Source: Pseudoselenomonas ruminantium
GTDB taxonomy: Bacteria > Bacillota > Negativicutes > Selenomonadales > Selenomonadaceae
Length of the DNA stretch: 64,000 bases
Direction of reading: 5' to 3'
NCBI RefSeq assembly: GCF_900113715.1
Contig: NZ_FOQK01000014.1
Coordinates: forward strand, 1-64,000
In this document: in pieces, positions 18,076 to 23,568 of the stretch
Position numbering within the stretch: position 1 is the first letter of the stretch
How the letters are laid out: every line of letters starts with the position of its first letter
The notes under the pieces: generated by a model
Database searches by the model: none
What the model saw: the letters and a program-made list of their open reading frames with translations, nothing else
What the model was told of the DNA's origin: nothing
Position numbers and translations under genes: made by a program

Positions 18076-20004
18076 ATGGCAGAGAATAAGGAAAATCAGC
18101 AGGGCCAGGAGCAGGATCTCAACGAGATGCTCAAGGTCCGCCGCGAGAAGATGGAAGCGTTCAAGGAAATCGGTGTAGCTCCGTTCGGCCATCGCTATGA
18201 GGTCACGGACTATGCTGCCGACATCAAGGCAAAGCATGATGGACTTGAAGGCGACGAAGAAGGGCCGGAGGTAACGATCGCTGGCCGTCTTATGGCTATC
18301 CGTGGCCATGGCAAGGCTTCGTTCTGCACGCTTAACGACCGCACGGGTAACATCCAGGTCTACTTCAAGGTCGACGTGCTCGGCGAGGAGAAGTACAAGC
18401 AGCAGTTCCGCAAGCTCGATATCGGCGATATCGTCGGCATCCGCGGCGTCGTCTTCAAGACGCATCGCGGCGAGGTCACGGTACGTGTTGAAGATTTCGA
18501 TCTGCTGAGCAAATCCCTGCGTCCGCTGCCGGAGAAATTCCATGGCCTGCAGGATGTCGATATCCGCTACCGTCAGCGCTATCTCGATCTCATCATGAAC
18601 CAGGATGTCCGCGACACGTTCCGCAAGCGCACGCAGATTATCCGCGCAGTCCGCGAGTATCTCGATGCGCGTGACTATCTGGAAGTGGAGACGCCGGTCC
18701 TGTCGACGATTGCCGGTGGTGCAGCGGCCCGTCCGTTCATCACGCATCACAATACGCTGGGCATCGACCTCTACCTGCGCATCGCCACGGAGCTCAACCT
18801 CAAGCGCTTGATCGTCGGCGGCCTTGACCGTGTCTATGAGATCGGCCGCATCTTCCGCAACGAGGGCATGGATGTCCGCCATAACCCGGAGTTCACGTCC
18901 ATCGAGTTCTATCAGGCCTTTGCTGACTATCAGGACATGATGGACCTGACTGAGGGCATCGTGGCCAATGCCGCAGAGAAAGTCCTCGGCACGACGGTCA
19001 TCAACTACCAGGGCGTCGAGATCGACCTTTCAAAGGTAAAACGCATCAGCATGAACGATGCGGTAAAAGAGGCTACGGGCAAAGACTTCATGGCTTGCGA
19101 GACGGTCGAAGAAGCCCGCAAGCTGGCCGATGAGATCGGTGTGCCGTATGAGCAGCGTCATGGCATCGGCGGCATCCTCAACGCTGCGTTTGAGGAAAAG
19201 GTCGAGGAGACGCTGATGCAGCCGACCTTCATCACGGGGCATCCGACGGAAATCTCGCCGCTGGCAAAACGCAACGCTGACGACCCGCGCATCACGGACC
19301 GTTTCGAGTTCTTCATCTATGGCCGCGAGCTGGCCAATGGCTTTACGGAGCTCAACGACCCGATCGACCAGAAGGGCCGTTTCGAGGATCAGCTCAAGCA
19401 GCGTGAAGCTGGCGACGATGAAGCCCATGGCATGGACGAAGACTTCGTCACGGCCCTGGAGTACGGCCTGCCGCCAACGGGCGGTGTCGGTATCGGCATC
19501 GACCGTCTTGTTATGCTGCTGACCGATGCTGCTTCGATCCGCGATGTCCTGCTGTTCCCGACGATGAAACCGCTGGGGACGCCGGCACCGCTGGCTGAGG
19601 CACCGGCAGCTGCTGTACCGGAGAAGATTGACTTTTCGAAGGTTGAGGTCGAGCCGCTTTACGAGGATATGGTCGACTTCGATACGTTCTGCAAGTGCGA
19701 CTTCCGCGCCGTCAAAGTCAAAGACTGCGTTGCTGTCAAGAAGAGCAAGAAGCTCCTGCAGTTCACCCTCGATGATGGCACGGGCACGGATCGCACGATC
19801 CTTTCCGGCATCCATGCCTTCTACGAGCCGGAGCAGCTCATCGGCAAGACGCTCATGGCCATCGTCAACCTGCCGCCGCGTGCCATGATGGGCATTGAGT
19901 CTTGTGGCATGTTGATTTCCGCCGTCCACACGGAGGAAGGCGAGGAGAAACTGCACCTGCTGCAGCTCGACCCGCATATCCCGGCTGGCGCAAAAATGTG
20001 CTGA
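18076..20004 (+). CDS. lysS: lysyl-tRNA synthetase (class II) with fused C-terminal tRNA-binding domain
   Basis: A 642-residue enzyme that charges tRNA-Lys. It has an N-terminal OB-fold anticodon domain ([18 protein letters not shown]), class II motif 2 ([19 protein letters not shown]) and motif 3 ([14 protein letters not shown]) ending near residue 500. A short Ala/Pro-rich linker then leads to about 110 residues of Trbp111/EMAPII type ([17 protein letters not shown]...[17 protein letters not shown]). Standard LysS is about 490-500 residues. This extra tRNA-binding module is usually seen in MetRS or as a free protein. Confidence 0.96.
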
Positions 20005-20006
20005 AT

Positions 20007-20081
20007 GGTCAAACTTGACATTTGACTTTTGACCGGTCAAATCTGACTTTTGTTGGATTTGACCGGTCATTTTATTTGACT
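20007..20081 (+). promoter_or_regulatory. operator-like cluster of TTTGACY heptads
   Basis: Repeats of TTTGACY or its complement occur at 20007-20013, 20021-20027, 20028-20034, 20035-20041, 20058-20064, 20065-20071 (partial) and 20075-20081. Two of them form the 14-base perfect palindrome TTTGACCGGTCAAA at 20028. The last copy overlaps the -35 box of the helicase gene. This looks like a repressor site array; the regulator is unknown. Confidence 0.55.
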
Positions 20082-20102
20082 TGTCAACTGGTATGATATA
20101 AT
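20076..20102 (+). promoter_or_regulatory. promoter of the helicase-nuclease gene
   Basis: TTGACT and TATAAT are 15 bases apart, a short spacing that may make it weak or regulator-dependent. Confidence 0.5.
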
Positions 20103-20153: not shown

Positions 20154-23100
20154 ATGAAGAAAGATTTGGCGCCGGGTATATATGAACAGGTCATCAACGA
20201 GGGAATTGCTCAAGGCTTGACAAAAATCGATATGAGCCGTGTCCAAATTGATGCGATGGATATAGAAGAGGCTTCAGGGATACTGACGGGCTATTTAAAG
20301 GAAATCATTAAGAAGGGCTTGGATCATACAGCGGATCAGCATGACAAGGCAGAGCGGCTTAGGGCACAGATTGCACTGGCTAATGATATTATTGCGTTGA
20401 TAAAGGCCAGAACCGAAAATGAGGATTTGCAGGATGAACTCGTGGAGGGGGCAGGTAAGCAGCTTTTGGGAATTGCACCGGAAAATTCGTTGCAGCAGGT
20501 GAAAAAGAAGTGTGAGTTGCCGCGCCCAGAGACTTCATTGATTGAAACCTCGCTCTTCACTGGGGCGCAAAAAGAGCCCTCGATGTTTCATGAATTGAAA
20601 AAGGAAATCTTATCTGCCGACCGCATTGATATGTTGGTGTCCTTTATCAAATGGAGCGGGCTGGTCATGATTATGGATGAGTTGGAAACTTTTTGCCAAC
20701 GTGGTGGACAGTTGCGGCTGATTGCCACCTCGTATATGGGGGCAACAGATGTAAAGGCCATCGACAAGTTGGCAGAGCTTACGAATTCCTCTGTGCGCAT
20801 TTCTTATGATACGAAGCGTACGCGCCTGCATGCCAAGGCGTATGTTTTTTATCGGGATACCGGTTATGACACGGCTTATATCGGTTCTTCCAATTTGTCG
20901 CATGCGGCTATCTCCAATGGGCTCGAATGGAATGTCAAGATTACGGCGTATGATTCTCCAGCGACTATGGAAAAGGTAAAGGCGACCTTTAATTCCTATT
21001 GGCATGCACCGGAATTCGAACCTTATACCCAGGCAGACCATGACTATTTGAATGAAGCCATTGAGCGGGAACGGCACCCGGATTGCTTCCGTGAGAAAGC
21101 CAGCACGTATTTATTTACCATTCGTCCCTATGCGTATCAGCGTCAGATGCTGGATGAACTTCAGATTGACCGCAAGATTCAGGGAAATTTCTGCAATTTG
21201 GTGGTGGCGGCAACAGGAACGGGAAAAACGGTGCTGGCAGCCTTTGATTATAAGCGGTTTTGTGAGCAAAATCCTGGAAAGCCCAACCGCCTGCTTTTTA
21301 TCGCCCATCGCGAGGAAATTTTAGATCAAAGCCGCCAATGCTTTCAGGCAATTTTACAGGATGCAAATTTCGGCGGGAAATTTGTGGGTACATCGAGGCC
21401 GCAGACCCAGTCGGAATTCGAGCATTTATTCATGTCGATTCAGACTTTCAATGCGCAGGCTTGGTATCATAAGACAACGGCAACTGCTTATGACTATATC
21501 GTAATTGACGAAGCCCACCATGCGGCATCGCCTTCCTATCAGGAATTACTTAGCTACTACCAGCCTAAAATCTTATTGGGACTCACGGCGACGCCGGAGC
21601 GCATGGATGGGCAGGACATTACCAAGTATTTTGGCGGACATATCGCCACGGAGCTTCGGTTGCCTGAGGCTATTGAGCGGGGGATGCTTTGCCCCTTTCA
21701 CTATTTTGGCGTCACCGATGTGGTAGACTTGTCTTCGCTCCAATGGGAGCGCGGCAGTTATCGCCGGAGTGAGCTGAATCGTGTCTACGTCTTTGAACAT
21801 GAAAAGGCACGTCGGCGGGCCCATTTGATTATCCAGAGTGTCAAGCGCTATGTCACTAATCTTATGGAAGTTCACGGCGTTGGGTTCTGCGTTTCGCGGG
21901 AACACGCTAAGTTTATGGCCGATTTCTTTAATGAACAGAATATCCCATCTATCGACTTGTCGGGGCTTAGCCAGGATGACGTGCGGCGGGAGGCTAAAAC
22001 TGCCTTGCAGCAAGGAAAAATCCGGTTTATTTTTGTGGTGGATTTGTACAATGAGGGTGTGGATATTCCCAATATCGATACGATTTTGTTTTTGCGGCCC
22101 ACAGAGTCCCTTACCATTTTCTTGCAGCAGCTCGGCCGTGGTCTGCGGCTGGCCGATGACAAGGATTGTTTGACGGTGCTGGATTTCATTGGACAGGCCA
22201 ATAAAAAATATCGCTTTGAGGAAAAGTTCCGGGCTTTGCTGGGAAATACCCGCCGCGGGGTAGCAGAGGAAATTCGCACGGGGATTACTTCGGTGCCCCA
22301 TGGCTGCTACATTCAGCTTGAAGAAAAAGCCCAGCAGTTTGTACTGGATAATATCAAAGGGCAGTTGAATAATAAACGGGGCCTGGTGCAGAAAATCCGG
22401 GAGTTTTTCCAGGAGGCAGGACAGCCTCTGACGTTGGAAAACTTCTTGCGCTACTACAAGCTTGATATTGCCAAAATCTATCGAAAGGGTGCCAAGGAGT
22501 CCTTTCATCGTCTTTGCGTACTGGCGGAGGCGTTGCCGAATTTCGTGGAACCTGAGGAAGAAAAACTTACGGCGGCTTGCTTACGGTTTGCTGCCATTGA
22601 CTCAGCCGAGTGGCTGCGGTTCTTATTGCGGATTTTGCCGGAGCTTCCGCGTCTTTCGGCGAATCGTTTCTCTGTCCGGGAAGAGCGGCTGCTGCAGATG
22701 ACCTATTATACGATTTGGAACGACAGCCTTGCGGAGGAATCGGCACGGGAACAGATTTATGAGCGGCTGCAAAGTTTGGGGGAAAATCCGACCATGTTAG
22801 CGGAGATTCAGGAAATTGCCGCTTATCGTCTAAAGCATTTACAGGTCATTGGGATGCCGAACCGGTTGTCCTTCGACTGCCCACTGGAAGTGCATTGTCA
22901 CTATACCCGTGACCAGCTCTGTGCGGCCATGGATATGTTTAAACCGACAACCCTGCGGCAGGGTGTTTATTATCACAAGGAAAAACATTGTGATATCTTC
23001 CTTATCACACTAAACAAGAGTGAAAAGGATTATTCGCCTTCGACGATGTATCAGGATTATTCGATGAGTGAGTGGTTATTTCACTGGGAGTCGCAGAGTA

Positions 23101-23342
23101 CGACTTCCGATACTTCACCGACAGCCCAGCGTTATTTTCAACATAAAGAAAACAAGCATCAGATTTTGCTATTCGTTCGTGAATACAAGGAAGATGCTTC
23201 GGGAGCTGCGCCCTTTATGTTCCTTGGCACAGCTAATCACGTCAGCCATTCAGGCAGTAAACCGGTGCAAATTATATGGAAGCTCGATGACCCAATACCA
23301 GCAAAGTTCTTGAATACGACGAATAAGCTGGTGGTGGAATGA
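20154..23342 (+). CDS. PLD-nuclease / SF2 helicase / DUF3427 fusion, probable defence protein
   Basis: A 1062-residue multidomain protein. Residues about 1-130 are helical. Residues about 150-300 are a phospholipase-D-like nuclease domain with HAKAYVF near 226 and IGSSNLSHAA near 247. Residues about 330-700 are a superfamily 2 helicase: Walker A ATGTGKT (about 352), DEAH in VIDEAHHAAS (about 450), LTATPERMDG, and motif VI QQLGRGLRL (about 656). The remainder matches the DUF3427-type C-terminal region. Such fusions recur in restriction and phage-defence settings (family knowledge), so a DNA-targeting defence role is inferred. The gene is visibly AT-richer than its neighbours, stands alone between lysS and thiT, and is bracketed by near-identical 16-base sequences. 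Confidence 0.85.
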   Translation: MKKDLAPGIYEQVINEGIAQGLTKIDMSRVQIDAMDIEEASGILTGYLKEIIKKGLDHTADQHDKAERLRAQIALANDIIALIKARTENEDLQDELVEGAGKQLLGIAPENSLQQVKKKCELPRPETSLIETSLFTGAQKEPSMFHELKKEILSADRIDMLVSFIKWSGLVMIMDELETFCQRGGQLRLIATSYMGATDVKAIDKLAELTNSSVRISYDTKRTRLHAKAYVFYRDTGYDTAYIGSSNLSHAAISNGLEWNVKITAYDSPATMEKVKATFNSYWHAPEFEPYTQADHDYLNEAIERERHPDCFREKASTYLFTIRPYAYQRQMLDELQIDRKIQGNFCNLVVAATGTGKTVLAAFDYKRFCEQNPGKPNRLLFIAHREEILDQSRQCFQAILQDANFGGKFVGTSRPQTQSEFEHLFMSIQTFNAQAWYHKTTATAYDYIVIDEAHHAASPSYQELLSYYQPKILLGLTATPERMDGQDITKYFGGHIATELRLPEAIERGMLCPFHYFGVTDVVDLSSLQWERGSYRRSELNRVYVFEHEKARRRAHLIIQSVKRYVTNLMEVHGVGFCVSREHAKFMADFFNEQNIPSIDLSGLSQDDVRREAKTALQQGKIRFIFVVDLYNEGVDIPNIDTILFLRPTESLTIFLQQLGRGLRLADDKDCLTVLDFIGQANKKYRFEEKFRALLGNTRRGVAEEIRTGITSVPHGCYIQLEEKAQQFVLDNIKGQLNNKRGLVQKIREFFQEAGQPLTLENFLRYYKLDIAKIYRKGAKESFHRLCVLAEALPNFVEPEEEKLTAACLRFAAIDSAEWLRFLLRILPELPRLSANRFSVREERLLQMTYYTIWNDSLAEESAREQIYERLQSLGENPTMLAEIQEIAAYRLKHLQVIGMPNRLSFDCPLEVHCHYTRDQLCAAMDMFKPTTLRQGVYYHKEKHCDIFLITLNKSEKDYSPSTMYQDYSMSEWLFHWESQSTTSDTSPTAQRYFQHKENKHQILLFVREYKEDASGAAPFMFLGTANHVSHSGSKPVQIIWKLDDPIPAKFLNTTNKLVVE

Positions 23343-23402
23343 AGAACGGATAGCGAATCGAGGAGATTGTGGATAGAGGCAAATCCTCAACCGCGACAGA
23401 TG

Positions 23403-23418
23403 TTGACAAGTCAACTGG
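23403..23418. repeat. 16-bp repeat copy downstream of the helicase gene
   Basis: TTGACAAGTCAACTGG differs in two of 16 bases from TTGACTTGTCAACTGG at 20076-20091, in the same orientation. The two copies bracket the helicase gene. Confidence 0.6.
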
Positions 23419-23448
23419 CTGGAAATTGGGGGGGTTCTTTTTCAAGGA

Positions 23449-23568
23449 CAAAATAAAAGAACCCCGAAGACTCAAGGATGTGTACTGCCCCCCATAAGTT
23501 AGACCTAGAAAATCTAACTTTATGGGGGCACTACATGTATGTGAGCCTTTCGGGGTTCGTTTATTTTG
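23449..23568. repeat. long imperfect palindrome with IS3-like ends, also terminator-like
   Basis: Two arms of about 55 bases pair around a nine-base centre. The inner 23-base arms (23481-23503 and 23513-23535) share 19 of 23 positions and start TGTACTGCCCCCC / TGTAGTGCCCCC, resembling the terminal repeats of IS3-family (IS150-group) elements. The outer arms (GAACCCCGAA ... TTCGGGGTTC with a T-rich flank) look like a terminator for thiT on the minus strand. No transposase is present. A plausible reading is a tiny IS-derived element inserted in the loop of a terminator. Confidence 0.6.

What the first reader, a model, noticed from the sequence alone, without database searches (positions are those of the whole stretch)
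20154..23342. Solitary PLD-helicase-DUF3427 protein, likely a one-gene defence system
One gene combines a PLD-type nuclease, a DEAH helicase and a DUF3427 region, is AT-richer than its flanks, and is inserted alone between lysS and thiT in a region of core genes. No methyltransferase or specificity subunit is present, so it would act by itself, unlike type I/III restriction. This is the best candidate here for a little-described system.
Basis: partly seen in the sequence, partly recalled or inferred. Interest (0 to 1): 0.7.

Follow-up and report, generated by a model that had tools for sequence, protein, structure and literature searches.

The report
SauUSI-like restriction enzyme behind lysS
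The gene most likely makes a one-protein enzyme of a known kind that shreds foreign DNA carrying chemically modified bases, and it sits at a chromosomal spot where some related bacteria carry other cargo, including another restriction system.

Summary
In detail: one intact 1062-codon gene (20154-23342, +) with PLD nuclease, SF2 helicase and DUF3427 parts, 48.3% G+C against 56-59% around it, alone between lysS and thiT. PADLOC mREase_IV matches at 2e-226; a family profile aligns with SauUSI (7clg) from nuclease to reader; the modelled C-terminus takes the SRA fold, SauUSI first (Z 12.4). It belongs to a longer subfamily with about 120 extra N-terminal residues and a fixed, slightly different base pocket. 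The place is a swap site: relatives carry type I genes, sugar-uptake genes or no restriction gene there, and the gene shows signs of transfer between species. Unasked but notable: such enzymes often lie beside a NudG/MutT-like nucleotide hydrolase (within 500 bp in 13 of 48 long-form and 11 of 15 short-form loci; about 0.4% expected). The window holds none.

The parts
20154..23342 (+). Gene for a 1062-aa PLD-helicase-DUF3427 protein, SauUSI-like type IV restriction enzyme (long-form subfamily)
20154..20522 (+). N-terminal extension (residues 1-123), mostly helical in a low-confidence model, opens with a conserved GxYEQVIN-like motif; lies outside the stretch that aligns with SauUSI 7clg
   Evidence: no Pfam match in this part
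20601..21002 (+). PLD-type nuclease domain (residues 150-283); H226, K228, N247, E258 conserved in 38 of 38 long-form (window included) and 15 of 15 short-form sequences
21120..22223 (+). SF2 helicase-like ATPase (residues 323-690): Walker A G355/K358/T359, DEAH 452-455, T478/T480, Q658, R662/R665
22224..22859 (+). Coupler region (about residues 691-902), helical in the full-length model, aligned with the SauUSI coupler by the profile
22860..23339 (+). Target-reading domain (about residues 903-1062), SRA fold; D968 and W978 align with SauUSI D858 and W868 of the flipped-base pocket
20030..20069 (+). Intrinsic terminator of lysS (TGACCGGTCAAATC..GATTTGACCGGTCA, then T run), present in all six sequences aligned (window and five relatives); left edge of the swap site
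20076..20102 (+). Promoter-like TTGACT - 15 nt - TATAAT with TG before it (extended -10), just after the lysS terminator; G018, G019 and G010 have a near-identical stretch. The pattern scan does not list it (it allows spacers of 16-18)
   Evidence: inference
23343..23560 (.). Right edge of the variable interval; no blastn match (1e-10) to the G001, G002 or G018 loci, apart from a short GTTGACAAGTCAACTGGCTG shared with G001 (23402 here, L013 9720), seen by eye

Best explanation
A stand-alone type IV restriction enzyme of the SauUSI kind. Working model by analogy with SauUSI: two copies pair through their PLD domains and share the nuclease site; the C-terminal SRA domain flips a modified cytosine out of incoming DNA; this switches on the helicase-like motor, which moves along the duplex; colliding or stalled enzymes cut both strands and shred the DNA between sites. 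No methyltransferase is needed, because unmodified host DNA is not a target. Shown here: gene, domains, catalytic residues, a predicted SRA fold, swap-site location, signs of horizontal transfer. Inferred: dimerisation, ATP-driven shredding, phage or plasmid restriction. Unsettled: which modification and which sequence context are read.
For: PADLOC mREase_IV PDLC03659 covers residues 124-1052 at 2.3e-226, PDLC03658 151-778 at 1.2e-89. phmmer hits 7clg at 9.3e-87; the 7-sequence profile aligns 144-1025 with 7clg 42-920 at 1.1e-119. Foldseek and VIA put SauUSI first for the C-terminal model (VIA Z 12.4, 132 residues, rmsd 2.8, 21% identity), followed by SRA domains of KRYPTONITE, SUVH5/6, AbaSI, PvuRts1I, MspJI and UHRF1. 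Nuclease residues H226, K228, N247, E258 and the motor motifs checked do not vary in 38 of 38. Mobility at the site. Relatives occur in plasmid, phage and viral-contig records.
Against: No activity tested. In the pocket, SauUSI Tyr-831 falls opposite V938 (37 of 38) or a neighbouring residue, so the exact substrate may differ. The host G000 itself carries two full-length C5-cytosine methyltransferases and a partial third at a contig end, so an enzyme that cut all 5mC would be suicidal. Carriers do not avoid C5 methyltransferases: at E 1e-40, 10 of 41 carriers against 92 of 398 genomes of the phylum sample. The full-length model was poor (mean pLDDT 57), the C-terminal one moderate (69), and Foldseek's own superposition on 7clg was loose (TM 0.55, rmsd 14.4).
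Confidence: 0.88

Rival explanations
1. Same architecture, but the reader domain senses something other than 5mC/5hmC (another base modification, or a narrow context), because the long-form pocket is fixed and differs from SauUSI.
For: V938 in 37 of 38 long forms where 8 of 15 short forms have Tyr; Y969 and H1032 in 38 of 38 long forms but 1 and 2 of 15 short forms; the long form is one side of a fully supported branch; the host and 9 further carriers hold C5 methyltransferases.
Against: D968 and W978, which align with the residues that read and stack the flipped cytosine in SauUSI, are kept in 38 of 38 (short forms: 12 and 10 of 15). The alignment around V938 is uncertain by one or two columns, and position 940 is aromatic in 35 of 38.
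Confidence: 0.3
2. A multi-gene or abortive defence system (Mokosh, DISARM, NgoAVII/CglI-like, type I R subunit) of which this is one subunit.
For: PADLOC matches to PbeA (2.8e-37), REase_I (3.9e-21), MkoB (4.6e-7), ZacB and DrmC (7.7e-6) models.
Against: Those matches are about 190 to 220 orders of magnitude weaker than the mREase_IV match. No partner was found among eight window neighbours or seen by eye next to the Selenomonas copies. Reader, motor and nuclease are in one chain.
Confidence: 0.04
3. A chromosomal DNA-repair or housekeeping helicase-nuclease.
For: The helicase part matches RadD (1.1e-26).
Against: 93 bits against a RadD cut-off of 720. A relative at E 1e-60 occurs in only 12 of 22 genus genomes, the long form in 7 of 22, two of these broken (G014, G016) and a remnant in G020. 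Signs of horizontal movement.
Confidence: 0.03

Closest known systems
SauUSI (Staphylococcus aureus, PDB 7clg), type IV restriction enzyme
   Same: Single chain, PLD nuclease - SF2 motor - helical coupler - SRA reader in the same order; HxK nuclease motif; pocket Asp and Trp; described as sufficient on its own
   Different: Window protein has about 120 extra N-terminal residues; the acidic residue after HxK (E126 in SauUSI) is Tyr in it and in 21 of 38 long forms (Glu in 1); other pocket residue where SauUSI has Tyr-831; reader 21% identical by structure; specificity unknown
PADLOC mREase_IV model PDLC03659
   Same: Covers residues 124-1052 at 2.3e-226
   Different: The match starts after nearly all of the N-terminal extension. 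I did not learn which proteins the model was built from; the search for DUF3427 returned two papers and their passages name SauUSI as the tested member
NgoAVII and CglI restriction systems
   Same: PLD nuclease plus SF2 motor (passage)
Type I restriction HsdR (3h1t; EcoAI family model)
   Same: Related helicase-like motor
   Different: PLD-type nuclease, no methylase or specificity subunit beside it; far below the EcoAI cut-off (118 of 550 bits)

Membership tests
SauUSI-like type IV restriction enzyme | N-terminal PLD-type nuclease with HxK motif and conserved N and E | tested here: met
   (38 of 38)
SauUSI-like type IV restriction enzyme | Central SF2 helicase-like ATPase with Walker A, DExH and motif VI | tested here: met
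SauUSI-like type IV restriction enzyme | C-terminal SRA-fold reader (DUF3427) | tested here: met
   Pfam DUF3427 2.2e-26; SauUSI first by fold, Z 12.4, on a model of moderate confidence (pLDDT 69)
SauUSI-like type IV restriction enzyme | Pocket residues for a flipped modified cytosine (Y831, F841, I842, D858, W868 in SauUSI) | tested here: inconclusive
   D968, W978, F949, I951 match; at the Tyr-831 position Val, or a shifted alignment
SauUSI-like type IV restriction enzyme | Single gene without its own methyltransferase | tested here: met
   eight neighbours scanned, no DNA methyltransferase found
SauUSI-like type IV restriction enzyme | ATP-dependent cleavage of modified DNA only | not testable with these tools
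   needs protein or phage assays
Type I restriction-modification | HsdM and HsdS beside the motor subunit | tested here: not met
   none among the eight neighbours scanned
NgoAVII/CglI-like | Separate PLD-B3 and helicase subunits | tested here: not met
   nuclease, motor and SRA-fold reader in one chain

The most novel reading that the evidence does not exclude
SauUSI-type enzymes are in many lineages two-part systems: the modification-dependent nuclease plus a NudG/MutT-like nucleotide hydrolase that removes modified dCTP (5-methyl- or 5-hydroxymethyl-dCTP) from the pool, either to keep host DNA from becoming a target or to starve phages of modified nucleotides. The long-form subfamily of the window gene has a fixed, different reader pocket, and in the window's own clade the nuclease works without an adjacent partner.
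Probability: 0.3. Interest if true: 0.65.

Novelty: new member of a known kind. Interest (0 to 1): 0.33.

Why it matters
It turns a suspected new system into a named one and marks the stretch behind lysS in this group of Selenomonas genomes as a place where restriction cassettes are exchanged. The neighbour survey raises a testable question that bears on modification-dependent enzymes in general: how does a cell that cuts modified DNA keep modified nucleotides out of its own genome? A recurrent nucleotide-pool cleaner next to the nuclease would be a direct answer.

Tried and rejected
Considered and dropped: (1) The palindromes upstream (TGACCGGTCA twice) as operators: they are the arms of the lysS terminator, present in all six sequences aligned. 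(2) Avoidance of C5 methyltransferases as support for 5mC targeting: no avoidance (10 of 41 carriers, 92 of 398 in the sample, both at E 1e-40). (3) The full-length structure model (mean pLDDT 57): not used for claims on fold; a 203-residue C-terminal model was used instead (pLDDT 69). (4) A defence-island test by neighbours: apart from the NUDIX gene, the 11 other families seen in three or more loci within 4 kb looked to me like same-genus synteny or generic groups (regulators, recombinases and the like), by eye. (5) The palindrome at 23486-23530 as a repeated mobile element: its 32-base core occurs once in the genome with up to 3 mismatches. (6) NUDIX partners as NudG proper: the 10 of 25 that I scanned fall below the cut-off of every NCBIfam family listed; 19 of 25 score higher against E. 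coli NudG than MutT, 6 the other way.

Literature on the NUDIX pairing: searches in the held library (open-licence PMC papers only). One figure legend (PMC7641849, passage) mentions MutT homologs beside SauUSI homologs in Streptococcus; in those listings I found no paper that follows it up, which is a statement about that library and those terms only. One search (Selenomonas ruminantium, restriction-modification) gave four papers, none on this locus by its listing. Papers: PMC3874153, PMC7159879, PMC7641849, PMC12707154, PMC5567051, PMC9146914, PMC5389931 and PMC12839542: passages; PMC7913695: abstract, passages and part 4 of 8 of the text; all others: listings only.

Not in the NUDIX count: L031, L032 and L037 (same genes as L015, L023, L024), L138 (no match), L013 (no such gene), L039 and L040 (partial or distant), L081, L096 and L097 (short contigs), and three weaker hits that I did not fetch (G160, G398, G443). 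Kept although broken, partial or cut close by a contig end, among them L024, L035, L100, L101, L110, L112, L117, L124, L126, L130, L133 and L137, so misses are counted generously. One search, a cruder motif count, gave 12 long-form loci within 60 bp. The short-form gene ends are estimates; the NUDIX gene of L151 lies 19 bp from the matched stretch, and it is not among the 11.

Full report
What is there. The window holds one intact gene at 20154-23342 (+), 1062 aa, with PLDc_2, ResIII/Helicase_C and DUF3427 matches in that order. Its G+C is 48.3% against 58.3% for lysS and 56.8% for thiT. Eight neighbours scanned are housekeeping or cobalamin-pathway genes by Pfam.

What it is. PADLOC's strongest match is mREase_IV, PDLC03659, residues 124-1052 at 2.3e-226. 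The best solved relative is 7clg, which Foldseek's table names as SauUSI. A profile of seven relatives aligns 144-1025 with 7clg 42-920, so nuclease, motor, coupler and reader are colinear. A model of residues 860-1062 (pLDDT 69) has SauUSI as first structural match, Z 12.4 over 132 residues, followed by SRA domains of plant SUVH proteins, AbaSI, PvuRts1I, MspJI and UHRF1.

Residues. In 38 long-form sequences (window included) H226, K228, N247, E258, G355, K358, T359, D452, E453, H455, R662, R665, D968 and W978 do not vary. D968 and W978 align with SauUSI D858 and W868, which the structure paper places at the flipped cytosine. Where SauUSI has Tyr-831, 37 of 38 long forms have Val, with an aromatic residue two positions on in 35 of 38 (Y, W or F); the alignment cannot say which residue takes the place. 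The acidic residue that follows HxK in SauUSI (E126) is Tyr here and in 21 of 38.

Two subfamilies. Of 299 genomes in a phylum sample, 40 have a DUF3427 match at E 0.001 or better (39 over the cut-off). The matches fall into strong full ones (ORFs mostly near 950-1010 aa) and weaker partial ones (intact ORFs mostly near 1045-1110 aa, the window's kind). On a tree of 53 sequences (38 long, 15 short) each kind is one side of a fully supported branch, although A_L153 has a long branch and the tool warns of it. The long form has an extra N-terminus opening with a GxYEQVIN-like motif. Its function is unknown; the model there is too poor to use.

The site. One search found lysS in 16 relatives of the genus; I fetched the flank of 12 and listed the first ORFs behind lysS. 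G001 has hsdR-hsdM-hsdS directly behind lysS (Pfam) with thiT on the far side; G002 has a glucosamine-isomerase and PTS genes, then thiT; G018 has a 532-aa gene, a 95% copy of the window gene, then a peptidase-like gene (by eye); G019 has a 520-aa relative of the 532-aa gene, a 188-aa gene and the same peptidase-like gene, no restriction gene seen; G010 has hsdM-hsdS behind its 544-aa relative; in G015 lysS is followed by a 207-aa gene and then cbiT-cobM, and its 65% homologue lies elsewhere (L023); the other six (G008, G012, G005, G011, G017, G004) show other genes in the first six ORFs listed and no match to the window gene. So the clear swaps are in five close relatives; in the more distant ones the surroundings differ too much to call it the same site. 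The lysS terminator is present in all six sequences aligned, and the promoter-like stretch after it in the window resembles G018, G019 and G010 more than the closest relatives G001 and G002. Between window and G018 the restriction gene differs at 19.8% of third codon positions, lysS at 32.7%; first and second positions are alike (3.3% and 2.9% against 4.0% and 3.0%). I read this as import of the cassette with the end of the lysS region by homologous recombination; the recombination step is inference.

In the genus search (22 genomes) a relative at E 1e-60 occurs in 12, and the long form in 7 (G000, G018, G015, G016, G003, G011, G014), two of them broken (G016 by a stop, G014 in pieces), with a remnant in G020.

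A recurrent neighbour. A NUDIX hydrolase gene lies within 500 bp of 13 of 48 long-form and 11 of 15 short-form loci; within 3 kb, 15 of 48 and 12 of 15. In the 56 genomes, NUDIX domains occur 358 times in about 164 Mb (summed), so about 0.4% of places would have one that near. The gene sits upstream, downstream or convergent, and on the tree its presence needs 13 changes. It was the only family shared by more than five loci in the neighbour clustering (25 loci). The loci were not drawn as a controlled sample and I ran no control set of other type IV genes. The neighbours lie between E. coli NudG and MutT in sequence. PMC5389931 (passages) lists an E. [quoted passage not shown] the E. coli record itself names NudG a 5-hydroxy-CTP diphosphatase. 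The window holds no such gene in its 64 kb, the five other sequences of its clade have none in the flanks held, and G000 has 4 NUDIX domains elsewhere. The idea that the hydrolase keeps modified dCTP out of host DNA, or starves phages of it, is inference.

Results against a plain 5mC reading. G000 encodes two adjacent full-length C5 methyltransferases next to genes that match PADLOC type II restriction models, and carriers do not avoid C5 methyltransferases (10 of 41 against 92 of 398 at E 1e-40). The enzyme must therefore read a context that host methylation does not make, or another mark. From memory, this gene set resembles LlaJI, whose sites would not fit S5mCNGS; I did not test that.

Mobility elsewhere. 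In the plasmid collection 332 records match and 10 have one place covering at least 80% of the query; 8 of the 25 listed match from within the first ten residues, most on replicons of 0.2-2.6 Mb, some of which may be chromosomes. In the phage collection 2577 records match, mostly by the helicase; 4 cover at least 80%, three of them from residue 5-7, all short unannotated faecal records. One scan of viral contigs gave three long-form loci, two of them partial, and one weak match; the two partial ones lie behind runs of recombinase-like genes (L100, L101, label by eye).

Verdict. A real gene of a known kind: a SauUSI-like type IV restriction enzyme of a longer subfamily, for which the searches made (listings and the passages named) showed me no biochemistry. 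The swap site and the NUDIX pairing are the parts worth following.

Noticed in passing
L033 1152-1559, L099 11078-11551, L100 8458-8844, L103 3650-4036, L131 7386-7769, L134 7433-7819, L139-L147 and others: NudG/MutT-like NUDIX genes lie beside SauUSI-like genes far more often than expected (within 500 bp in 13 of 48 and 11 of 15 loci; about 0.4% expected).
   Followed up: partly
L160 3020-8498 (G000 contig 23): Two adjacent C5-cytosine methyltransferases with a 347-aa and a 498-aa protein that match PADLOC type II restriction models; resembles LlaJI from memory.
   Followed up: partly
window 23486-23530: Near-perfect palindrome TGCCCCCCATAAGTTAGA..TCTAACTTTATGGGGGCA, like two abutting insertion-sequence ends (recalled); its core occurs once in the genome.
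   Followed up: partly
L015 13120-14718, L016 7706-9268, L017 8091-9725: A 520-544-aa gene directly behind lysS in three relatives; the L015 copy has no Pfam match at E 0.001 and no PADLOC match at 1e-10; not behind lysS in the window.
   Followed up: no
G003:C23, G009:C42, G010:C1, G018:C21, G006:C143, G013:C38 (L029, L030 fetched for two): A shorter relative (open frames of 809-812 aa), 35-37% identical over PLD and helicase, in six genus genomes; no match to the window protein's reader domain was reported.
   Followed up: no
L100 1272-6183, L101 3104-7885: Runs of three recombinase-like genes directly upstream of long-form genes on contigs called viral, pointing to integrative elements as carriers (label by eye).
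   Followed up: no
window 18076-20004 and relatives: LysS comes as a form of about 642-645 aa with a C-terminal tRNA-binding domain in some species and as a form of about 502 aa in others of the same genus.
   Followed up: no
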